Positions 39,464 to 48,541 of a stretch of 64,000 nt of DNA are shown piece after piece. The notes beneath the pieces are model-generated. The model was not told the DNA's origin. It worked only from the letters and a program-made list of their open reading frames with translations, and ran no database searches. A program made the position numbers and the translations under genes. The stretch covers positions 1 to 64,000 of the forward strand of contig PQAL01000013.1 in assembly GCA_003105035.1 (NCBI GenBank), read 5' to 3'. Numbering within the stretch: position 1 is the first letter of the stretch; each line of letters opens with the position of its first letter. Source of the stretch: Anaerolineales bacterium (lineage in GTDB: Bacteria; Chloroflexota; Anaerolineae; Anaerolineales; UBA4823).

Positions 39464-39560
39464 GTAAATGATCCTTTCAACAGAGAAGTTGGCATATTAT
39501 AAATCACGAAAGCGAGGTGAGAGTACCTGATAAAAGAATTATTAATACCCTATTTTGGGC

Positions 39561-39589
39561 TTGATTATTTATATTAATTTCTGTACACT
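39561..39589 (+). promoter_or_regulatory. Possible promoter of the three-repeat secreted protein
   Basis: TTGATT (39561-39566) and TACACT (39584-39589) are 17 bp apart; an overlapping GATAAT is an alternative -10. The start would be about 42 nt before the ATG. Confidence 0.4.
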
Positions 39590-39638
39590 GATAATAGTAT
39601 CGGGCAAGCTAGCTGTAACCTGCCTGGAGGAGAAAGCA

Positions 39639-41672
39639 ATGATTAAAAATCTGCGTAAAATCGGGTATATATTTTTGATCCTGATGTTCTTATCCGGCAT
39701 TGGGATCGTTGTTGCCAGGGCTCAGGATGGTGTTCTTCTGGCTGATGCAGTAGTTTACCTGCCCATGCTTTTCAAGGAGCCACAGGGAGGCCAATCGATA
39801 AGTGGTAGGGTGCTCAGCCCTCAAAGCGTTCCCCTTCCAGGGGTCACAATTCGTACCGATCACGGCCAGTCAGTAGTTACGGATCTGGAGGGCGATTATG
39901 TCATCGATGGTCTAAATGACGGTTCATATGTGCTCACCCCATCCCAGGGGGGCACAGTATTTTCGCCGAGCTCATCTTCCGTGATCGTCCCCCCTAACGT
40001 AGAAAAATTGAACTTTACAGCTCAGGTGAGCTGCTCCCAGGTGGTGATCAATAGTGGTTTTGAAGATAACTCTGGTTGGGAGTTCCCCGTCACCGCATAT
40101 ACCGCGGGGTACACCACCTCTGAAAAACACAGTGGCAGCCGCTCAGCCCGGACAGGCATCGTTAACCCGGCGGACAATATCTACAGCTATTCATCCACCC
40201 GCCAAAAGGTGAGTATCCCATCCGGAAGCACCAGTGCTTATCTCACTTTCTGGATCAAACCTTATAGCGGGCAAGTAATGGGGCAGGCATTACCGCACAA
40301 ACCCGATGCAGGTGCATCCGTGGATGCTGCCCAAATGTCAGGGGATGTACAGTACGTGCTGATCCTGGACAGTAACCTCAATACCATCGGCACCCTGGTC
40401 TGGCAGATCAGCAATAGCCAGACCTGGACCCAATTACAGTTCAATCTGGTTGGTTATGCTGGCAAAACCATCTACCTCCATTTCGGCACTTATAACGATG
40501 GCTATGATGGAATATCTTCCCTGTTCGTCGATGATGTCTCTTTGGAAATCTGCCCGGGAGGGCCTCCTCCTCCCACCCCCCCACCAGGTCCATGCACGAA
40601 CCTGATCCGCAACCCTGGTTTTGAGTCGAGTAGCGATTGGGAGATCCCCAATACTGCCTACCCTGCAGGTTATTCCACCGTCCAGGCTCATAGCGGCGCC
40701 CGCTCGATGCGTACGGGAATACTTAATCTCGGAGAAAATAAGTACAGTTACTCAGATTTCCGCCAGGCGGTGACCATCCCCTATGGCGCAGCTGTTGCCA
40801 AGGCCAGCTTCTGGCTTTACACCTTGAGCGGGGAAACGAAAAGCATGTCCCAGCTCGAGGCGATCACTCCTACCGGAAGGCCTTTCGAGCAGACTGTCCT
40901 TAGTGGCGATTTACAGTACGTACTGATCCTGGATCGCTACCAAAATTGGATCGACACCCTGGTGTGGCAACGCACAGCTGAAGGCTACTGGCATTATTAT
41001 GAGTTCGACCTGCGCCGCTATGCTGGCCAGAAAATCTACCTGCAGTTTGGAACCTATAACGATGGCTATAATGGCATAACCAGCATGTTCGTGGATGATG
41101 TCAGCTTGAGTGACTGCCCAGCCACGCCGACCCCACCCCCCGGCCAGTGCCAGGAGCTGATCGTCAACAATAATTTCGACAGCAATAATGGCTGGATCAT
41201 CCTGAAGACCAACTACCCGGCGGCCTACTCCAATGCCCAGTATCATTCCCCCTTCCGCTCAATGCGTACCGGGATCACAAACTCGGCTGATAACACCTAC
41301 AGCTATTCCGACTTCCGGCAGGTGGTCAGCATCCCCTCGAATGCCAACCACGTCACCTTGAATATGTGGGTTTACCCGCAAAGTAGCGGAACAACACTGG
41401 GATCCTTGCCCATGCCTGAACGCACGCAGTTCTTCGGTCTCGAGCCTATGGCTGATGATTCCCAATACTTGCTGGTGCTGGATCAAAACCAATACTGGAT
41501 TGATACCCTGCTATGGATGCGCAGCAATAGCCAGGTATGGACGAACAATATCATGGACCTGAAGGAATTCGCTGGGCGGACGATCATGTTGCAGTGGGGC
41601 ACATACAATAATGGCACAGGCGGCATCTCATCGATGTTCGTGGATGACGTGAGCCTGCAAGCTTGCCCATGA
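39639..41672 (+). CDS. Secreted protein with carboxypeptidase-like domain and three jelly-roll-type repeats
   Basis: This 677-residue protein starts at ATG 39639 behind GGAGGAG. A signal peptide (about residues 1-33) is followed by a carboxypeptidase-regulatory-like beta domain (ISGRVLSPQSVPLPGVTIRTD, YVIDGLNDGSYVLTP). Three ~175-residue repeats follow, each starting with a cysteine and NxGFE-type motif and ending YAGxxIYLxFGTYNDGYxGIxSxFVDDVSLxxC, joined by Pro-rich linkers. The repeats look like carbohydrate-binding or MAM/jelly-roll modules. No catalytic domain or cell-wall anchor is seen. It may be a surface adhesin or a matrix-binding protein. Confidence 0.75.
   Translation: MIKNLRKIGYIFLILMFLSGIGIVVARAQDGVLLADAVVYLPMLFKEPQGGQSISGRVLSPQSVPLPGVTIRTDHGQSVVTDLEGDYVIDGLNDGSYVLTPSQGGTVFSPSSSSVIVPPNVEKLNFTAQVSCSQVVINSGFEDNSGWEFPVTAYTAGYTTSEKHSGSRSARTGIVNPADNIYSYSSTRQKVSIPSGSTSAYLTFWIKPYSGQVMGQALPHKPDAGASVDAAQMSGDVQYVLILDSNLNTIGTLVWQISNSQTWTQLQFNLVGYAGKTIYLHFGTYNDGYDGISSLFVDDVSLEICPGGPPPPTPPPGPCTNLIRNPGFESSSDWEIPNTAYPAGYSTVQAHSGARSMRTGILNLGENKYSYSDFRQAVTIPYGAAVAKASFWLYTLSGETKSMSQLEAITPTGRPFEQTVLSGDLQYVLILDRYQNWIDTLVWQRTAEGYWHYYEFDLRRYAGQKIYLQFGTYNDGYNGITSMFVDDVSLSDCPATPTPPPGQCQELIVNNNFDSNNGWIILKTNYPAAYSNAQYHSPFRSMRTGITNSADNTYSYSDFRQVVSIPSNANHVTLNMWVYPQSSGTTLGSLPMPERTQFFGLEPMADDSQYLLVLDQNQYWIDTLLWMRSNSQVWTNNIMDLKEFAGRTIMLQWGTYNNGTGGISSMFVDDVSLQACP
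40032..41666 (+). repeat. Three tandem ~525-bp coding repeats
   Basis: Repeat units lie at 40032-40553, 40593-41117 and 41148-41666. Each encodes about 174 residues beginning and ending with cysteine, so each unit could be closed by a disulfide. The linkers are proline-rich (PPPPTPPPGP and TPTPPPG). Unit two and three share YSYSDFRQ and MRTGI segments. Confidence 0.8.
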
Positions 41673-41690: not shown

Positions 41691-41719
41691 CCCGGAGGAA
41701 ATGCCTCCGGGATTTTTTT
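41691..41719 (+). terminator. Intrinsic terminator after the secreted protein
   Basis: CCCGGAGG (41691-41698) pairs with CCTCCGGG (41704-41711) across a 5-nt loop, followed by ATTTTTTT. The T-run overlaps the stop codon of the convergent gene. Confidence 0.93.
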
Positions 41720-42410
41720 AATTGGAGGCTGGTGCAGCTTCTTTCAGGTACGCTTTATGGTTTATTAACCCTGCGCTCCACATCACCAGGGATAGCCCGA
41801 TGATCACCAAGGACCAGCCCGCTATCTGGAACGGCATGTGCCAAACATCAGCATAGTTAACTCCAGTGATCGTATGGGTAAATCCCATAAAGTACTGGAT
41901 AGTCAAGCACATCGCACCCATGGCGATAGCTGCCGATCCACCTGCCAGGCCGGCTGTGTTGGACGGATGCGGACGGCCATAACCAATATGCTCCCATAAA
42001 CCTGGGATGCGGTAGATCAGGAAGACTACCAGGGTGAGCAGGTTGACGTAGGTCACCATGTCCACCGGCATGGAGCTACCGCGCAGGCTCCGTGAGACCA
42101 GCATGTGGATGACGCCGACGACTGATCCACCGATCAGGGCAATGAGGGAATAGCGGTAGGCATTTGGTCGGTTGCGGATGAGTAGGACGACCGCCCGGAC
42201 ACCCATCACCCCAAAGGCAGTAGTCACGATTACGAACAGGATATACAACCATTGGTATGGGGCAATCCCTGAAAATGAGCCGCTAAAACCGGTTGGGTTG
42301 AGAGCAACACAGGTAGTCCCGATCCCACCCATCAAGGTGAAGACTGCTGTCAATCCCATCAACACGATGCCAATGATGCGTAAAACCTTAGCCCACCATT
42401 TATCTTTCAT
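41718..42410 (-). CDS. Six-helix membrane protein of the heme-copper-like operon, unknown
   Basis: This 230-residue protein has six predicted membrane helices and no recognised domain. Possible ligands near helix ends are the histidines in VIHMLV, FTHTITG and VWHMPF. ATG 42410 is preferred because GGAGA lies 6 nt upstream; the in-frame ATG at 42416 would touch the ribosome-binding site. It is the last gene of a seven-gene operon. Confidence 0.6.
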   Translation of the reverse strand: MKDKWWAKVLRIIGIVLMGLTAVFTLMGGIGTTCVALNPTGFSGSFSGIAPYQWLYILFVIVTTAFGVMGVRAVVLLIRNRPNAYRYSLIALIGGSVVGVIHMLVSRSLRGSSMPVDMVTYVNLLTLVVFLIYRIPGLWEHIGYGRPHPSNTAGLAGGSAAIAMGAMCLTIQYFMGFTHTITGVNYADVWHMPFQIAGWSLVIIGLSLVMWSAGLINHKAYLKEAAPASN

Positions 42411-42431
42411 TTGCATTCTCCTTTAGATACG

Positions 42432-43040
42432 TTATGCAAGCCTGAAACCAGTGACAAATGCCAGGGTAGTCAGCATGAACAATGCCGGTAGGATGCTCAA
42501 GATGATCTCACGCGATACGATCGGCCTCCCCGTACGCAAAAAATAGAGCAGCAAACCGCCCAATCCCATCAAGGCGCCGCCAAGACCCACAAAAGCAAAG
42601 CCCGGTGCGGTGATGCCTTGGGCAGCCAGGATAGTGGGCAAGAGAAACACGACCATCCCTGCCGCCCCGTGCACGATGGTTAATATAACCACCGATACCT
42701 GGGATGGGAAGCTAATGGTCCGGGTAATAATGATGGCCAGGAAGCCTGCTATGGTGAAGATAAGGTAGGCTAGCTTGTATTTTTCGACGTGTTCCCAGAT
42801 CAGCCCCAGGGAAAGGCTGAGCGGGATGATAGTGGAAACGATCACCACGACCCGGCTGTTCAAGACATCAAAACCGAGGATGATGACCAGCAAGCTGGCG
42901 ACGATCAGCACCCCAAAAGCGATCGTATATGCAATCGTAGGGATGCCTTCCAGGCCGTTGATACCCACAACGACCATATAGGCTGCCAAAAGGCAGGTAA
43001 TGAGCAGCAGGATGCGATCGAGAGGGGTTAGCTTCTTCAA
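42432..43040 (-). CDS. Seven-helix membrane protein of the heme-copper-like operon, unknown
   Basis: This 202-residue very hydrophobic protein has about seven helices and starts at a TTG (43040). Histidines occur in LIWEHVEKYK and ILTIVHGAAGMV. It matches no family I know. It lies 8 bp after ctaB and 21 bp before the final gene of the operon. Confidence 0.58.
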   Translation of the reverse strand: MKKLTPLDRILLLITCLLAAYMVVVGINGLEGIPTIAYTIAFGVLIVASLLVIILGFDVLNSRVVVIVSTIIPLSLSLGLIWEHVEKYKLAYLIFTIAGFLAIIITRTISFPSQVSVVILTIVHGAAGMVVFLLPTILAAQGITAPGFAFVGLGGALMGLGGLLLYFLRTGRPIVSREIILSILPALFMLTTLAFVTGFRLA

Positions 43041-43048
43041 CAGCCTGA

Positions 43049-43909
43049 TTATAGGGATAGCAGGATCATTGATGCAAGCATATAGATAGAAGCATACTTG
43101 AACAGGCTAAAGTTTACCTGTTCGGAGGGGCGAAAAACTGTCACCACGGAGAGCAACAAAAGGCCCGAGGACAGAACAGCCATCAAGCGCAGCGCTCCAG
43201 CCTGGATGCCAATCATTACTCCTGCTACACCGATCGAAGCAGCTGCAATGATGGCGGAGAGGGCAATGATGGCCCGTGTAGCATCGAAACCATAGGATGA
43301 TGGGAAGGTTGGCACGCCAGCTGCCTGGTAATCATCATAATAGCGCATGGTATAGGTGAGGATATGGGTCGGTATCCAGAACAGCACTGCCATCATGAGC
43401 AGCAAGCCCACCACATCAATATGACCAACCGCCAGCACCCGCCCAGCCAGAATGGGCATTCCGCCGGAAATACCGCCCCACACGATGCTCCAGCAGGTGC
43501 GGCGCTTCAGCCAGATGGTGTAGACAATCACATCGAAGAACAGTCCGCTGAATACTACAATACCATACAGCACATTCAACGAAATTGCCCAGCTTACACC
43601 GGCAAAGGATAATAACAAGCCGAGCCATAAGGCCTCACGGCGGGTGACTTGCCCCGAAGCCAATGGCCTGTTGTGGGTGCGGTTCATCACCGTATCGATA
43701 TCTGCGTCATACCACATGTTCAGGATGGTCGACCCGCTGATGGCCAGGAACAGGCTGCCAGCTAATCCAAGAAGTGTGCCCAGGGATAAATGGGTATGCG
43801 CGCTCATGTAGCCAGCCACGCCGGTGGATAGCAGTAAACCGGTCTGTAGGGTTTTTATGAGTGGTAGATATGCCTTAAATTTCGTCCTGAACAATTGTGA
43901 AATGCGCAT
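43049..43909 (-). CDS. ctaB: Heme O synthase-type prenyltransferase (CtaB/UbiA family)
   Basis: This 286-residue UbiA-superfamily protein has nine or so helices. The first aspartate-rich motif is NMWYDADIDTVMNRTHNRPLASGQ near residues 65-88, where RTxNRPL is the protoheme IX farnesyltransferase signature. The second region reads LKRRTCWSIVWGGISGGMPILAG and the loop PTHILTYTMRYYDDYQAAGVP. The enzyme converts heme B to heme O for heme-copper oxidases. Its placement in this operon supports a heme O or A requirement of the neighbouring membrane protein. Confidence 0.85.
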   Translation of the reverse strand: MRISQLFRTKFKAYLPLIKTLQTGLLLSTGVAGYMSAHTHLSLGTLLGLAGSLFLAISGSTILNMWYDADIDTVMNRTHNRPLASGQVTRREALWLGLLLSFAGVSWAISLNVLYGIVVFSGLFFDVIVYTIWLKRRTCWSIVWGGISGGMPILAGRVLAVGHIDVVGLLLMMAVLFWIPTHILTYTMRYYDDYQAAGVPTFPSSYGFDATRAIIALSAIIAAASIGVAGVMIGIQAGALRLMAVLSSGLLLLSVVTVFRPSEQVNFSLFKYASIYMLASMILLSL

Positions 43910-43912
43910 AGC

Positions 43913-44818
43913 TCAATCACCCCCTCGGGCACAGCGGAAGCCAACAGCAGGGCTGTAATATGTAGGTGTAGCGTTGTTCCTTACCCAAATGCGCAAGTCC
44001 ATGTCGTACGTATCCTTCGAGCCACCGCGGAGATAGCGATAGTGTTGCCCTTCATATACATTCCCAGTCCATTGCCAGACATTCCCAGCCATATCGTACA
44101 ATCCATAGGGGCTTGCGGAACTCAAAGTCTGGTAACCGTCATAGCTCTGCCCATTATAGAAGCCCACTGGGGTCGTCCAGGATCCGAATGAGCCCATATC
44201 TTCGTAAGGGTCTTGGCTGGCATAGTAATTGGCATTGTTACGGCCAATCTCCTCACCCCACGGGAATGGTCGGTTGTCCGCCGGGCCACGTGCGGCCTTT
44301 TCCCACTCCAGCTCGGTTGGCAGCCTACCGCTATTATAACCGCAGTAAGACCAGGCTCCAAACCAGGATACATTCGTCACGGGGTGATTCTCATATCCAC
44401 TTAATTCGCTAAATTGCAAGCCATCGAAAGTAAAGCGCGAAGCTGGATCATTGAGCGGAATGACAATATAGTCACCTGGAGTGATCTCGACCTCATGCTT
44501 CACACCATGAAATGCATCGCCAGGATAGTAAACAACAGCCTGGTCACCATCGATTTTCAAGCTGCCATCAGCCAATCCTGAATTGAGGAAGCTGACGTAT
44601 TGTGCTACAGTTACATCCGTGAGCATGATCTGGTAATCATACGCGATCGTAACCGGCTCGTCGTACTGCCCGGAAAGAAACTCTCCAGCGGGGATGTTGA
44701 CCCATGCTTCTGGGTCAACACCTGTATCGAACACCGGCATAGGGGCTGCCAGGTTAACAGAGGCACAGCCAGTCAGCAAAATTGCCATCAGGATAAGAAG
44801 CAACGCCAGGAGTTTCAT
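43913..44818 (-). CDS. Lipoprotein with formylglycine-generating-enzyme (SUMF1) fold
   Basis: This 301-residue protein has a lipoprotein signal (lipobox LTGC). The domain has the family landmarks VNIPAGEFLSGQ, IMLTDVTVAQYVSFLN, HPVTNVSWFGAWSYCGYNSGRLPTELEWEKAARG in parts, DMAGNVWQWTGNVY and RYLRGGSKD...GFRCARGG. Active sulfatase-maturing enzymes use a cysteine pair for copper; I do not see that pair clearly, so a structural or binding role is more likely. Its stop overlaps ctaB closely and its start overlaps the upstream gene by four bases. Confidence 0.82.
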   Translation of the reverse strand: MKLLALLLILMAILLTGCASVNLAAPMPVFDTGVDPEAWVNIPAGEFLSGQYDEPVTIAYDYQIMLTDVTVAQYVSFLNSGLADGSLKIDGDQAVVYYPGDAFHGVKHEVEITPGDYIVIPLNDPASRFTFDGLQFSELSGYENHPVTNVSWFGAWSYCGYNSGRLPTELEWEKAARGPADNRPFPWGEEIGRNNANYYASQDPYEDMGSFGSWTTPVGFYNGQSYDGYQTLSSASPYGLYDMAGNVWQWTGNVYEGQHYRYLRGGSKDTYDMDLRIWVRNNATPTYYSPAVGFRCARGGD

Positions 44819-46293
44819 GGCTTCACCTCCATTGCCAGCTGTTCTTCAGCTGCCTCTTCAGCCCACCGCCCCTTGCACTTGAACAGATCGATCAGCCGCC
44901 AGACCAGCAAAGCGGCTAAAATCACCAGTAATAAACCCAAGGCAACATCAGTCAACAACATGATGGTATTAACCAGCGGCTGCTGCTCGGCTTCACTCAC
45001 AAAGAGTCGTTTCATTTCAAATATAGTCACGGATGCAAACGCCAGGTCAGACAGGACAATGATGCCCCAGCCATACCACTGGCGGATTTTCCCTTTCAAG
45101 CCGATGAGATCACCATAATACAGCAGGATGATCGTGGCAATGATGGCTGAAAGGATATGCCAGTGCCCGGTCAGCTCAATGCGCTCTTCGCGGGCTGGCC
45201 AGAGGCGGAAAATCTCGTCCAGCCTGACTGCCATGAAAATACCGATACCGCTGACAGTGAAGTTCATGAACACCATCTGCCACAGGGCACCGAACTTCAA
45301 GGGATCACGGACCAGAGCGGACAGTTTATGTCCTAGGTTGGGTTTGGGAATTCCACGGATGCCCTGGCGGATAAACTTATCCCAGCCAAAGATCACCAGG
45401 AACAACGCAGCCAGCATGGAGGGAGTGGCACCCATATAGATGATCATGTGGGCGGCCGGTTCCAGGGGAGTGACCACGCCCCAGACACCCAGGTTGAGCA
45501 CGATCGTGCCCAGGATCATCAGCGGCATGGCGATCTTATGCAAGACGCCTTTAAAATCCAACCAGCGCCCGACAATCAGCGTGAGGGCAATGGCGATGAG
45601 GGCCAGCATGATGTGCAGGTGGCCGATGACCGAGAATTGCAGGGTGGTCTTTTCGGGGGCGCGGATGATGTTTTCAGCCAGGAAGGCCTGGAAACCATTG
45701 CCGAAGTACGAGCCGGGAACTGCGCCAAAAAGGACCGAAAGCAGGGTGGTAACGGCCATGGCAAAAAAAGCCACCCGCTCGATATCCACACCTTTCTTCG
45801 ACCTGGAGTAGGCTTTATCGGGTTGATAATATTCCGGGTTCCAGGGCCAGAGTGCGATGGCAAGCAGCAGGCCAGCGATAAAGACAATGGAGAGCCCGGC
45901 AATGTATAAACCGTGTAAAGGCCAAATATGACCCCAATAAGCGAAACCCATGCCAAAGATCATGGCGGATAAATAACCAATGGTGATGAGCAGGCGGATG
46001 GTGGTCTTATAAAACGCCTTCATCTTGAGCATGGCGGTGATGATATAGGTCTCGATGGCGACCATGGCCATGGCGATAGAATGGTAGAGGATGATGATGC
46101 GACCTTCCCGCTCTGCCTGCACCAGGTCCATCCTCAGCAGCTTCACCACCACATCTCGCACCCCGTACTCTGCCATCGGTCCCGAAAGCATACCGAAGAT
46201 GGCTGTCTCCAGGGCGATCATGGCAATGGCAACCAGGATAAGCCCCTTAGTCGATGCAAACAGATATTTCAGCCGATCCTTGAAAAAACCCAT
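44815..46293 (-). CDS. Heme-copper oxidase / NO reductase-like catalytic subunit, divergent
   Basis: This 492-residue protein has about 12 membrane helices. Histidines fall in the order of heme-copper/NorB subunits: H71 (ILYHSIAM), H225 and H227 (IGHLHIML), H282 (AAHMIIYMGATP) and H377/H379 (TGHWHILSA). The spacings (154, 57, 95) are close to those I recall for NorB (H60, H207, H258, H347/H349). The second His of the helix-7 pair is Met283, and the NorB glutamate four residues after H207 corresponds to Met229. Start ATG 46293 follows AGAGGA. The call is by pattern; overall similarity to known oxidases is low. Confidence 0.55.
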   Translation of the reverse strand: MGFFKDRLKYLFASTKGLILVAIAMIALETAIFGMLSGPMAEYGVRDVVVKLLRMDLVQAEREGRIIILYHSIAMAMVAIETYIITAMLKMKAFYKTTIRLLITIGYLSAMIFGMGFAYWGHIWPLHGLYIAGLSIVFIAGLLLAIALWPWNPEYYQPDKAYSRSKKGVDIERVAFFAMAVTTLLSVLFGAVPGSYFGNGFQAFLAENIIRAPEKTTLQFSVIGHLHIMLALIAIALTLIVGRWLDFKGVLHKIAMPLMILGTIVLNLGVWGVVTPLEPAAHMIIYMGATPSMLAALFLVIFGWDKFIRQGIRGIPKPNLGHKLSALVRDPLKFGALWQMVFMNFTVSGIGIFMAVRLDEIFRLWPAREERIELTGHWHILSAIIATIILLYYGDLIGLKGKIRQWYGWGIIVLSDLAFASVTIFEMKRLFVSEAEQQPLVNTIMLLTDVALGLLLVILAALLVWRLIDLFKCKGRWAEEAAEEQLAMEVKP

Positions 46294-46500
46294 GAGCAAT
46301 CCTCTATGTTAAAAATCAGTAGATGTGTAACCCGTCCTTCACTTATACAATAAAAAGTCAGCAAGTAATATTATTGCATGAATCAGCCGGTTTTTCCCAT
46401 GATAAAAATCACTATTCTGGCAGCAAAATTCCAGGGGTGGAAATTTGCCTTCGGAAAAACTCCAAATACATCGCTGGTTAAGCCACACCTACACCGGGTT
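46294..46500 (-). other. Gap inside the heme-copper-like operon
   Basis: These 207 bp contain no believable gene. On the minus strand TTACTT and TATAAG occur 15 bp apart (about 46345-46371), a weak internal promoter. GTTACAC nearby resembles half of the Crp-type palindrome upstream of the operon. Confidence 0.3.
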
Positions 46501-47289
46501 CTAAGGTTGTTCAGTTTCTTCTGCCTGTGTCCACTTCTGCCACAGGTTGGGCCAGACTAGCAGGACAAGCAGGATCAGGCAGGAGATGGGCGCCAGGGCG
46601 AAGAGAGAGAAGCGTCCCAGTGCCTGGGCAGTGGCGATGGTCAGCGGGATGCCTACCACCAGCTCTGCGACCGCAGCAATCAGGCCCACAACACGCATCC
46701 ATTCCCGCGGCTTCATGATAATCCCGACCGTCACAACCGCAAAACCGAGCATCGCCACCCAATGCAGGTGCTGAACCAGGGTGAATATCGGCGCTCCGAT
46801 GGTGATGATACGGCTGGTGCTGGCGACACCGTTCATCCAGCAGAAGATATAAGCAATCCCCGTCAGCAAACCCAACAAGGTGCGGCTCCAGGGTACTTTG
46901 CCAACCACGACCAGGAACAAGAAGTATAAGACCAGGTAAGGCCAGAATAGAGGGAAGTAAATTGGCGGCAGACCAGCAGCCATATATGGCACATTGATGA
47001 ACCAGCTGCCTAACAAGGCCAATACCAGGGCAATTACCGAGACGAAGAATGCCCAATTTCGGCGAGTAAAAAAGCCATAGGCGCTGACGGCGAACATCAC
47101 TCCAGCCAGCATACCCAGGTCAGCCATCAAGGGGTGAATGGTCTTTAGTAATATCTCACAGCCAGGCTCTGCGGAGGGGGTGTGCATGCCGATTTGGTAC
47201 CACTTGAGGAACAAGATCATATGCCCAATGATCCCCATCAGGGCTGCTATGATGGACAGGATGCCACCGATCAAGTTTTCTTTTTTCAT
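46501..47289 (-). CDS. Eight-helix membrane protein with HxH motif, unknown
   Basis: This 262-residue protein has about eight helices. Helix six contains QHLHWVAMLGF, a HxH reminiscent of the heme ligands in the neighbouring protein. Other candidate ligands are in IIGHMILFLKWY and KTIHPLMADLGM. ATG 47289 lies 6 nt after GGAGA; the ATG at 47295 is too close to it. I recognise no family. It may be a heme-carrying partner subunit, which is speculation. Confidence 0.6.
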   Translation of the reverse strand: MKKENLIGGILSIIAALMGIIGHMILFLKWYQIGMHTPSAEPGCEILLKTIHPLMADLGMLAGVMFAVSAYGFFTRRNWAFFVSVIALVLALLGSWFINVPYMAAGLPPIYFPLFWPYLVLYFLFLVVVGKVPWSRTLLGLLTGIAYIFCWMNGVASTSRIITIGAPIFTLVQHLHWVAMLGFAVVTVGIIMKPREWMRVVGLIAAVAELVVGIPLTIATAQALGRFSLFALAPISCLILLVLLVWPNLWQKWTQAEETEQP

Positions 47290-47313
47290 ATTCATTCTCC
47301 TCTTTTATCTGCA

Positions 47314-47724
47314 TCAAGGTTCGGGGGTTGCCCCCGTATGACATGAGCAACCGTTGTAATAGGCTGAATTGTTGTGATCCGCCACATAAACGACCGTCTG
47401 TGGCTCTATCGTTAGCTGGCATTGCTTGAGAAATAAGGGCTCCTCCACCCAGGGATAAACCTGGACATCGCAGCCAACATAGACCACCCCACTCCAGGTA
47501 TCATTACACAGCGGACCGTCGATAATTTTGTCTACCTGTAGCTCCTGGTTGCCAATCTTCATTTGGGATTGACCCTTAGCGGGTATTGGAGTGGGTAACT
47601 GATCAGGGGGGACCGACAGGTACTGCGGGGTGCCCGTGGCTGGGGGGCAAACGGGTTCTGCCTTCCCGCAGCCCACGCTGAAAATGGCGAGGCTAATGAG
47701 CGCCAGGCATAGTTTAATATTCAA
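47314..47724 (-). CDS. Cysteine-rich lipoprotein, first gene of the heme-copper-like operon
   Basis: This 136-residue protein starts at a TTG (47724) and has a lipoprotein signal with lipobox SVGC. Further cysteines lie in AEPVCPP, GPLCNDTW, YVGCDVQVYPW, LKQCQLTI and the terminal NGCSCHTG. CSCH is one residue short of a CxxCH heme site, so it is not a standard cytochrome c. Disulfides or metal binding are possible. A palindrome lies 31 bp upstream. Confidence 0.65.
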   Translation of the reverse strand: MNIKLCLALISLAIFSVGCGKAEPVCPPATGTPQYLSVPPDQLPTPIPAKGQSQMKIGNQELQVDKIIDGPLCNDTWSGVVYVGCDVQVYPWVEEPLFLKQCQLTIEPQTVVYVADHNNSAYYNGCSCHTGATPEP

Positions 47725-47754
47725 TGATATCTATTCCCATGCTGAGATGATCTC

Positions 47755-47773
47755 TGTTATGTGAAATGTAACA
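47755..47773. promoter_or_regulatory. Palindrome between the operon and the Crp/Fnr gene
   Basis: TGTTA-N9-TAACA lies between divergent genes. Its centre (47764) is about 40 bp from a plausible start of the leftward operon, the place of a class II Crp/Fnr activator site. It is not an exact CRP or FNR consensus. Confidence 0.5.
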
Positions 47774-47835
47774 CAAAGCTTCAACCATGTCTTTGCCTTA
47801 AAGCAAATCCAGGTCAGGTTAGTTTTATCTGCAGG

Positions 47836-47841
47836 TATAAT
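47836..47841 (+). promoter_or_regulatory. -10 box of the Crp/Fnr regulator gene
   Basis: A perfect TATAAT lies 19 bp before the ATG. No good -35 is present at the right distance, which suggests activator dependence. Confidence 0.45.
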
Positions 47842-47860
47842 GACTTGGTGAGGTGGCGGC

Positions 47861-48541
47861 ATGGAGACCAGTCAATTACTCAAACAGAATATCGTTTTCA
47901 GTAACCTAAATGAGCGTATGCTGGATGACCTGATAGAAGGCGCCATCATCCGGCAGTATCACAAAGGGCAGTATTTGACCCATCCCGGGGATACCTGGCC
48001 ATACCTCTTTTACCTGCTGAAAGGCTCGATCAGTGCCATCAAAGAATCGTTGGAAGGTCGCAGCCTGGTTGCCACGACATTCAAAGCAGATGAGGTCTTT
48101 TGGGGAGTTTCTTTCTTTGATCTTAACCTGCCCATGCCTGTAGCTTTAAAAGCGGACAGCCAGAGCAGCGTATACCTGTGGTCGCGAGAGCAGATGCTGC
48201 CGGTGCTCATGCAGAACGGGGGTGTGTCGTGGGAGCTGAGCCGGCTGATGGTCCGCCGCATGCTGCGCGCCAGTGAGATCGTGGAAGAGCTTGCCTTCCA
48301 GCCTGTAGCAGGCCGCCTGGCTAGATTGTTGATCGATTACCCCGGGCAATCAGCCGCTGGACCGGTAGCACGCTCGTTGACCCTGGACGACATGGCAGCC
48401 CGCATTGGCTCAACCCGTGAAGTGGTATGCCGCTTTTTACAGCAATTCGCCGACGAGCAGCTCATCAAGATCACCCGCACAGAGTTCGAGATCACCGATC
48501 GGGATGGCTTGCTGGGCATTGTGCGTAAGGTTCGCGGATAA
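47861..48541 (+). CDS. Crp/Fnr-family transcriptional regulator
   Basis: This 226-residue protein has an N-terminal cyclic-nucleotide-binding-like barrel (YHKGQYLTHPGDTWPYLFYLLKGSISAI, FKADEVFWGVSFFDL), a long dimer helix (LSRLMVRRMLRASEIVEELAF) and a C-terminal winged helix (LTLDDMAARIGSTREVVCRFLQQFADEQLI). There is no N-terminal cysteine cluster, so it is not an iron-sulfur FNR; heme, NO or cyclic-nucleotide sensing remain open. It is divergent from the heme-copper-like operon and is the natural candidate for its regulator. Confidence 0.9.
   Translation: METSQLLKQNIVFSNLNERMLDDLIEGAIIRQYHKGQYLTHPGDTWPYLFYLLKGSISAIKESLEGRSLVATTFKADEVFWGVSFFDLNLPMPVALKADSQSSVYLWSREQMLPVLMQNGGVSWELSRLMVRRMLRASEIVEELAFQPVAGRLARLLIDYPGQSAAGPVARSLTLDDMAARIGSTREVVCRFLQQFADEQLIKITRTEFEITDRDGLLGIVRKVRG

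What the first reader, a model, noticed from the sequence alone, without database searches (positions are those of the whole stretch)
41718..48541. Candidate undescribed heme-copper-like membrane module under a Crp/Fnr regulator
Seven tightly packed minus-strand genes encode a cysteine-rich lipoprotein, an 8-helix HxH protein, a 12-helix protein with heme-copper/NorB-like histidine order, a SUMF1-fold lipoprotein, a heme O synthase-type CtaB and two further 6-7-helix proteins. A Crp/Fnr gene is divergent. CtaB beside a histidine-rich 12-helix protein points to a heme-copper superfamily complex, yet no canonical subunit II, CuA site or cytochrome c subunit is present and four members match nothing I know. 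Function (NO, O2 or other small-molecule reduction) is inference.
Basis: partly seen in the sequence, partly recalled or inferred. Interest (0 to 1): 0.82.

Follow-up and report, generated by a model that had tools for sequence, protein, structure and literature searches.

The report
New heme-copper-fold membrane enzyme family
A conserved gene cluster of Chloroflexota bacteria encodes a membrane protein that is predicted to fold like respiratory heme-copper oxidases but carries a different set of conserved histidines, probably with heme O, so it looks like an undescribed branch of a famous enzyme superfamily whose substrate (nitric oxide is my first guess) is still unknown.

Summary
In detail: seven packed minus-strand genes with a divergent Crp/Fnr gene. 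Sequence profiles (Pfam, NCBIfam, PDB) do not recognise the 492-residue protein. AlphaFold2 (pTM 0.85) plus structural alignment places it in the heme-copper oxidase (HCO) subunit I fold: all 50 listed rows are HCO or nitric oxide reductase, best Z 21.8 (cbb3). Seven histidines are invariant in 81 of 81 aligned rows: TM2, TM4, TM6 (HxH), TM8 start, TM10 (HxH). The canonical TM7 HH pair is absent. A SUMF1-fold gene follows in 75 of 75 close loci, CtaB (heme O synthase) in 72 of 74. Among 94 class genomes without canonical COX1, 11 of 11 with this gene have CtaB, against 17 of 83 without it. Heme A synthase is absent in 12 of 12 carriers tested. Best reading: an HCO-fold heme b/o gas reductase or related heme protein; NO somewhat more likely than O2, by inference. 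DUF438-hemerythrin genes lie by 6 of 15 distant homologs but by 0 of 100 closer ones, so the substrate link is weak for this window. A CRP-type operator recurs in the divergent promoter (16 of 21 loci). Novelty: new variant of a known kind.

The parts
44815..46293 (-). 492-aa, 12-TM heme-copper-fold protein; invariant His H71 (codon 46081-46083), H127 (45913-45915), H225 (45619-45621), H227 (45613-45615), H282 (45448-45450), H377 (45163-45165), H379 (45157-45159)
   Evidence: AlphaFold2 pLDDT 79.7, pTM 0.85; VIA's 50 listed rows all HCO/NOR subunit I, best Z 21.8; His invariant in 81 of 81 rows; no useful Pfam, NCBIfam or PDB sequence match
43913..44818 (-). SUMF1/FGE-fold lipoprotein (301 aa), probably without FGE catalysis
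   Evidence: PF03781 E 5.2e-37; follows the 492-aa gene in 75 of 75 loci; nearest solved relative SUMF2; Asp where solved FGE has Cys, in a low-scoring stretch of the alignment
43049..43909 (-). CtaB, heme O synthase (286 aa)
   Evidence: TIGR01473 211.6 bits, cut-off 210.3; in cluster in 72 of 74 loci; only CtaB of this genome at E<=1e-30
42432..43040 (-). 202-aa multi-TM protein, invariant H124; core member, often with a paralog upstream of the 492-aa gene
   Evidence: 58 of 67 loci downstream, 38 of 68 upstream paralog; conservation
41718..42416 (-). 232-aa multi-TM protein, near-invariant C36, H104, H181; core member
   Evidence: 48 of 64 loci; conservation; AlphaFold2 pLDDT 90 but no coherent fold match
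46501..47295 (-). 264-aa multi-TM protein, accessory; H25 and H178 invariant in 12 orthologs
   Evidence: ortholog (>=55% id) in 14 of 63 loci, weaker paralog in 27 of 63; conservation
47314..47724 (-). 136-aa Cys-rich lipoprotein; C19, C26, C73, C85, C102, C126, C128, H117, H129 invariant in 13
   Evidence: 14 of 63 loci
47760..47775 (.). CRP-type operator (TGTGA-N6-TCACA, 1 mismatch) in the divergent intergenic region
   Evidence: present in 16 of 21 divergent loci at <=1 mismatch against 2.1% of random 250-bp windows
47861..48541 (+). Crp/Fnr-family regulator (226 aa), no Fnr cysteine cluster
   Evidence: PF13545 and PF00027 over cut-off; sequence has a single Cys

Best explanation
The 492-aa protein is the heme-bearing subunit of an undescribed branch of the heme-copper oxidase (HCO) superfamily fold. 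Shown by computation: the 12-TM HCO fold (predicted), seven invariant His on or next to the HCO ligand helices, conserved linkage to CtaB, and no canonical HCO and no heme A synthase found in its own genome. Inferred: H71 (TM2) and H379 (TM10) hold a low-spin heme b; H377 (TM10) holds a high-spin heme that is heme O, made by the neighbouring CtaB and not processed to heme A; H225/H227 (TM6) and H282 (TM8 start) form a reorganised non-heme metal site in place of the missing HH pair. Electrons probably come from the membrane (quinol), perhaps through the 202- and 232-aa subunits, as no cytochrome c or cupredoxin lies in the cluster. The FGE-fold lipoprotein caps the periplasmic face. A Crp/Fnr regulator without an Fe-S cluster acts at a CRP-type box. 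The most likely job is reducing a small gas in anaerobic or microaerobic Chloroflexota, with NO somewhat favoured over O2: some distant homologs sit beside a COX1-type subunit I with an altered TM6, and DUF438-hemerythrin-PAS genes, and no tyrosine is invariant in the TM6 and TM7 segments as O2 reductases would need (recalled rule).
For: Fold: (a second helical protein of the cluster gave only mixed rows). Seven His invariant in 81 of 81 rows. TM6-7 and TM10-11 are internally homologous, aligning H225-x-H227 with H377-x-H379 (hhalign probability 94.7, P 5.9e-8), in keeping with the HCO pseudo-threefold design. Synteny. CtaB linkage in COX1-negative genomes: 11 of 11 against 17 of 83, Fisher p 3.1e-7, not corrected for phylogeny. 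CtaA in 0 of 12 COX1-negative carriers. Own genome: no COX1 at E<=1e-20, one CtaB at E<=1e-30, a cytochrome bd gene. Gas-chemistry neighbours in distant loci: DUF438-hemerythrin-PAS 6 of 15, COX1-type subunit I 4 of 15, cupredoxin 3 of 15. Operator: with the HcpR/CRP motif read as passages in PMC545781 and PMC1274295.
Against: No sequence profile links it to HCOs, so ligand assignments rest on helix number, not on an alignment. The HH pair that defines the CuB/FeB site is absent. pLDDT is below 50 at 193-208, 210-212, 355-375 and 485-492. No coordinates were available, so His geometry was not checked. The substrate link does not hold for the window's own clade: DUF438-hemerythrin is near 0 of 80 close and 0 of 20 intermediate loci, flavodiiron near 1 of 80 and 0 of 20, the COX1-type partner near 1 of 80 and 0 of 20. 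No NrfA was found in the own genome. 17 COX1-negative genomes have CtaB without the 492-aa protein, and one COX1-positive carrier lacks CtaB at the threshold.
Confidence: 0.45

Rival explanations
1. It is a low-oxygen O2 reductase (a bo-type quinol oxidase branch) rather than a NO-linked enzyme.
For: Closest folds are cbb3 and ba3 oxidases; CtaB is typical of oxidases; 6 of 12 COX1-negative carriers show no cytochrome bd hit, so another oxidase would be useful to them; NO-type neighbours are nearly absent from the close clade.
Against: No conserved HH pair and no invariant Tyr within the TM6 and TM7 segments, which O2 reductases need (recalled); own genome already has a bd oxidase gene.
Confidence: 0.22
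2. It is not catalytic: an HCO-fold multi-heme electron conduit or assembly partner, in some lineages of a neighbouring COX1-type subunit I.
For: In L162, L166, L167 and L168 a COX1-type subunit I lies just upstream, with a cupredoxin-like protein in the first three; the TM6 HxH copy of the TM10 motif could ligate hemes rather than a metal site.
Against: The partner is near only 1 of 80 close loci (L044) and 0 of 20 intermediate ones, and 11 carriers have no COX1 at E<=1e-20.
Confidence: 0.2
3. It is a heme/copper membrane protein for NO tolerance or sensing, like NnrS, not a turnover enzyme.
For: 12 TM, many His, Crp/Fnr control; DUF438-hemerythrin neighbours in 6 of 15 distant loci.
Against: No Pfam family of that kind was reported; conserved CtaB and accessory membrane genes suggest a larger complex.
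Confidence: 0.1
4. The fold match is a generic 12-helix arrangement and the protein is unrelated to HCOs.
For: Foldseek E-values are weak (best 0.012) and no sequence profile connects them.
Against: All 50 listed VIA rows are HCO/NOR at Z 17.7-21.8 over 374-427 residues; His on the HCO ligand helices; CtaB linkage.
Confidence: 0.06

Closest known systems
C-type (cbb3) cytochrome oxidase subunit I, CcoN
   Same: Best structural match (8smr_E Z 21.8, rmsd 4.0, 396 aligned); 12 TM; His on TM2 and HxH on TM10
   Different: 8% identity in that alignment; no HH pair; extra invariant His on TM4 and TM6; no cytochrome c subunits in the cluster; PF00115 not reported
cNOR NorB and the rarer NOR families (qNOR, eNOR, sNOR, gNOR)
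   Same: Same fold (4xyd_A Z 19.2, 3o0r_B Z 18.5); no invariant cross-link Tyr in TM6/TM7; eNOR is reported from Chloroflexi (PMC8756737, passages)
   Different: Those families keep the HCO ligand frame that PF00115-type models detect (recalled); this one does not; no NorC or cupredoxin in the cluster
Oxidases with heme O (cytochrome bo3)
   Same: CtaB present, CtaA not found, so heme O would be the end product
   Different: No match of the cluster's proteins to other oxidase subunit families; no PF00115 match
NnrS (12-TM heme/copper protein of NO stress; recalled)
   Same: 12 TM, His-rich, regulator-linked
   Different: Not among the Pfam families reported; its fold was not available to compare

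Membership tests
Heme-copper oxidase superfamily, subunit I | 12-TM subunit I fold | tested here: met
   Predicted model; VIA best Z 21.8, all 50 listed rows HCO/NOR
Heme-copper oxidase superfamily, subunit I | Low-spin heme ligands: His on TM2 and second His of the TM10 HxH | tested here: met
   H71 and H379 on those helices, invariant in 81 of 81 rows; by helix number, ligation not shown
Heme-copper oxidase superfamily, subunit I | High-spin heme ligand: first His of the TM10 HxH | tested here: met
   H377 invariant in 81 of 81 rows; ligation not shown
Heme-copper oxidase superfamily, subunit I | Non-heme metal site: one His on TM6 plus HH at the periplasmic end of TM7 | tested here: not met
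   TM6 has two invariant His (H225, H227); no conserved HH (one row, L191, has HH at the other end of TM7); single H282 at the TM8 start
Heme-copper oxidase superfamily, subunit I | Match to the COX1 profile PF00115 | tested here: not met
   Not among the families reported at E<=10 for the 16 members of A1 and 21 of A4
cNOR/qNOR-type nitric oxide reductase | FeB Glu on TM6 four residues after the TM6 His (recalled) | tested here: not met
   M229 (H225+4) is invariant in 81 of 81 rows; if H227 is the equivalent the window has A231 there; register by helix only
cNOR/qNOR-type nitric oxide reductase | NO reduction to N2O | not testable with these tools
   needs assay
O2-reducing HCO | Cross-linked Tyr on TM6 or TM7 (recalled) | tested here: not met
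   No invariant Tyr in the TM6 and TM7 segments
Heme O synthase CtaB (neighbour) | TIGR01473 over curated cut-off | tested here: met
   211.6 against 210.3 bits
Formylglycine-generating enzyme (neighbour) | FGE fold | tested here: met
   PF03781 E 5.2e-37
Formylglycine-generating enzyme (neighbour) | Catalytic Cys pair | tested here: inconclusive
   The aligned stretch has Asp where solved FGE has Cys, but that stretch scores -0.2 bits; that this Cys is catalytic is recalled
Fnr (Fe-S) regulator | N-terminal Cys cluster | tested here: not met
   one Cys in the protein

The most novel reading that the evidence does not exclude
All three pores of the HCO pseudo-threefold bundle are used. TM6 carries the same HxH motif as TM10 (internal homology), TM4 and TM8 begin with invariant His, and the classical HH metal site is gone. 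Reading: besides heme b (H71/H379) and a heme O at H377, a third cofactor (heme or metal) sits in the pore that is empty in known HCOs (recalled), held by H225 and H127, while H227 and H282 face the pore of H377. This would be a three-cofactor HCO relative, possibly close to the state before the binuclear centre evolved, or a derived electron conduit.
Probability: 0.22. Interest if true: 0.92.

Novelty: new variant of a known kind. Interest (0 to 1): 0.72.

Why it matters
Heme-copper enzymes carry out most O2 respiration and much NO reduction, and their origin (NO first or O2 first) is debated. A family with the fold and the heme ligand helices but a different metal-site layout, invisible to the standard profiles, gives a branch on which the order of acquisition of the binuclear centre can be tested. 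It also means that genome surveys that rely on COX1/NorB profiles miss a candidate gas reductase in many Chloroflexota, which would matter for N2O and O2 budgets if the function is confirmed.

Tried and rejected
Sequence-level link to HCOs: profile searches of PDB chains with A1 and A4, Pfam and NCBIfam scans of single proteins and alignments and hhalign against Chloroflexota COX1 gave nothing significant. The COX1 alignment held wrongly chosen ORFs and was rebuilt with 18 of 30 loci, plus a partner-type set of four rows in which one protein stands twice. The best local alignment pairs our TM10 with the region after COX1 TM10, so it was not used for ligand assignment.

Two hits (G039, G186) lie beside long ORFs that I take by eye for reductive dehalogenases and vanish with profile A4 (17 of 400). 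A first synteny count used stop-to-stop frames and undercounted FGE; one search replaces it. The viral structure library gave nothing. The 232-aa protein has a good model but only mixed fold rows, so no function is offered. Heme A chemistry was dropped because CtaA was found in 0 of 12. NrfA was not found in the own genome (4 of 12 carriers are over the cut-off), so no nitrite-to-NO source is shown there. An Fnr-type O2 sensor was rejected for lack of cysteines.

Literature: nine searches of the held open-access library listed no paper whose title or shown abstract describes such a family; several lists were capped (for example 15 of 443), and most subscription papers are not held. Passages only were seen of PMC8756737, PMC545781 and PMC1274295; the others were seen as listings with abstract starts.
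Full report
What is there. Seven minus-strand genes run from 47724 down to 41718, with a Crp/Fnr gene divergent at 47861-48541. Pfam and NCBIfam recognise only three of the eight over their cut-offs: CtaB, an FGE/SUMF1-fold lipoprotein and the regulator. The 492-aa product of 44815-46293 has no Pfam family at E<=10 and no useful PDB sequence match.

Distribution. A scan of one genome per species (GTDB 220) found 298 stretches that encode a relative; the best 80 were kept (L021-L100). Their titles name Chloroflexi/Anaerolineae lineages, with the isolate Thermanaerothrix daxensis GNS-1 among them. Outside these 80 the taxonomy was not seen. In whole-genome samples, 17 of 400 phylum genomes (19, two of them rejected) and 56 of 298 class genomes (several are fragments, the weakest at E 4.7e-6) carry it.

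Gene order. Reading the same strand, the SUMF1-fold gene follows in 75 of 75 loci with enough sequence, CtaB in 72 of 74, the 202-aa gene in 58 of 67, the 232-aa gene in 48 of 64, and the full order in 46 of 64. The Cys-rich lipoprotein and the 264-aa ortholog are upstream in 14 of 63 each. These loci were chosen as the closest relatives (63-80% identity to the window protein for those in A2). In the ORF lists of the 15 most distant loci no FGE, 202 or 232 homolog was flagged.

Fold. AlphaFold2 from 46 sequences (the window and 45 of the 80 loci; one more was dropped for a stop codon) gave pLDDT 79.7 and pTM 0.85 with 12 long helices. Foldseek ranks 1-19 are all heme-copper oxidases (best E 0.012, probability 1.00). 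The VIA second look lists 50 rows, all HCO or NOR subunit I, Z 17.7-21.8; the top five are cbb3. As a contrast, the 232-aa protein, also helical and with a higher pLDDT, gave mixed unrelated rows with best Z 11.7. I take the HCO fold as established at the level of prediction.

Histidines. In an alignment of 81 rows (46 of A2 plus one from each of 35 further loci, profile hits of 150 bits or more; a few rows come from genomes that are also in A2) H71, H127, H225, H227, H282, H377 and H379 are invariant in 81 of 81, as are R65, Y70, Y119, R173, R211, M229, D330, E370, W378 and W409. By helix number H71 is on TM2, H127 on TM4, H225/H227 on TM6, H282 at the start of TM8, H377/H379 on TM10. Canonical HCOs have TM2 H, TM6 H, TM7 HH, TM10 HxH (recalled; the TM6, HH and HxH motifs of a solved quinol oxidase are visible). 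So the heme-ligand helices agree and the metal-site layout does not. TM6-7 and TM10-11 are detectably homologous to each other (about residues 207-263 against 359-415, probability 94.7, P 5.9e-8), pairing the two HxH motifs. The TM2 pairing was not significant.

Heme O. CtaB makes heme O from heme B (established). In 298 class genomes, 94 lack COX1 at E<=1e-20. Of these, 11 of 11 with the 492-aa protein have CtaB at E<=1e-30 and 17 of 83 without it do (Fisher p 3.1e-7; sets, retyped; counted). Among COX1-positive genomes CtaB is present in 44 of 45 carriers and 140 of 159 non-carriers. Related genomes are not independent and some assemblies are incomplete. The own genome has one CtaB, the one in this cluster (a second UbiA-type hit there has 30.6 bits), no COX1 at E<=1e-20, and a cytochrome bd gene. 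CtaA was found in 0 of 12 COX1-negative carriers, while the control search rings in 7 of 14 named genomes. So heme O, not heme A, is the expected product in those genomes.

Neighbours of distant homologs. I searched 115 loci by tblastn. Among 15 distant loci (L159-L173), DUF438-hemerythrin-PAS proteins are present in 6 (L162, L165, L166, L168, L172, L173; domains confirmed by Pfam for L162, L165, L172 and L173), a COX1-type subunit I in 4 (L162, L166, L167, L168; PF00115 E 3.9e-65 for L162), a small cupredoxin-like protein in 3 (L162, L166, L167), a flavodiiron protein in 2 (adjacent in L172; about 7 kb away and on the other strand in L170). In that COX1 the TM6 His of the aligned quinol oxidase is replaced and an Asp follows, while HH and TM10 HxH are kept. 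CtaB is downstream in L163, L169, L170 and L171. Against my reading, in the 80 close loci these counts are 0 (DUF438), 1 (COX1-type plus cupredoxin, L044) and 1 (flavodiiron, L100), and in the 20 intermediate loci all are 0. The gas-stress context therefore belongs to part of the distant clade and is carried over to this window only by homology.

Regulation. The window has one CRP-type palindrome with one mismatch in the divergent intergenic region (47760-47775; two such sites in the window against 2.09 expected by chance, so alone it means nothing). I then looked for the same pattern in 21 loci where a related crp gene (39% identity or more) diverges: 16 have it at one mismatch or fewer and 18 at two, against 2.1% and 9.5% of random 250-bp windows. 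Those windows are mostly coding and the intergenic stretches were 89-400 bp, so the contrast is approximate; L053, L059 and L096 have none. The motif equals the HcpR/CRP consensus reported for Desulfovibrio (PMC545781, PMC1274295, passages). HcpR is an NO-response regulator in other anaerobes (abstract starts). Whether this regulator is HcpR-like was not tested.

Mechanism. I commit to an HCO-fold heme b/o membrane protein with a reorganised active site, probably a quinol-fed gas reductase with NO first and O2 second. Shown: fold prediction, invariant His, gene linkage. Inferred: heme ligation, heme O use, electron route, substrate. The bolder reading with a cofactor in the third pore is not excluded: H225 and H127 would face it if the pseudo-threefold geometry holds; I had no coordinates to check.

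Verdict. New variant of a known kind. It is not filed as a member of any named HCO or NOR family, because the HH metal-site feature and the PF00115 match were tested and not met.

Noticed in passing
L001 (own genome C13, about 102.8 kb on the contig, outside the window): Two tandem small membrane proteins (frames of 155 and 134 aa) give the only, weak COX1 match of the genome (26.9 bits) and sit beside an ORF that looks like hemerythrin by eye; similar weak paired hits occur in other genomes.
   Followed up: partly
L162:9319-10944, L166, L167:7073-8686, L168, and L044:2801-4423: COX1-type subunit I with the TM6 His replaced (Asp next to it, seen in L162) and, except in the cut L168, a small cupredoxin-like partner, near the 492-aa homolog: itself a variant HCO worth study.
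   Followed up: partly
L049:4569-5744 and four further loci (cluster 22): A 392-aa multi-TM His-bearing protein without a Pfam or NCBIfam match recurs near the cluster in 5 loci; hhalign to COX1 is weak (probability 7.4).
   Followed up: partly
window 47314-47724: Cys-rich lipoprotein with seven invariant Cys and two invariant His in 13 homologs, no family over cut-off; possible metal or disulfide protein.
   Followed up: partly
L163:409-1821: A SufS-type cysteine desulfurase gene just upstream of the 492-aa homolog in one distant genome.
   Followed up: no
window 39555-41672: Protein with three InhA-like MAM stretches and a carboxypeptidase-regulatory domain, convergent with the cluster.
   Followed up: no
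L162:11633-12940, L165, L166, L173: NDH-2-type NADH dehydrogenase genes near 4 of 15 distant homologs, a possible electron source.
   Followed up: partly
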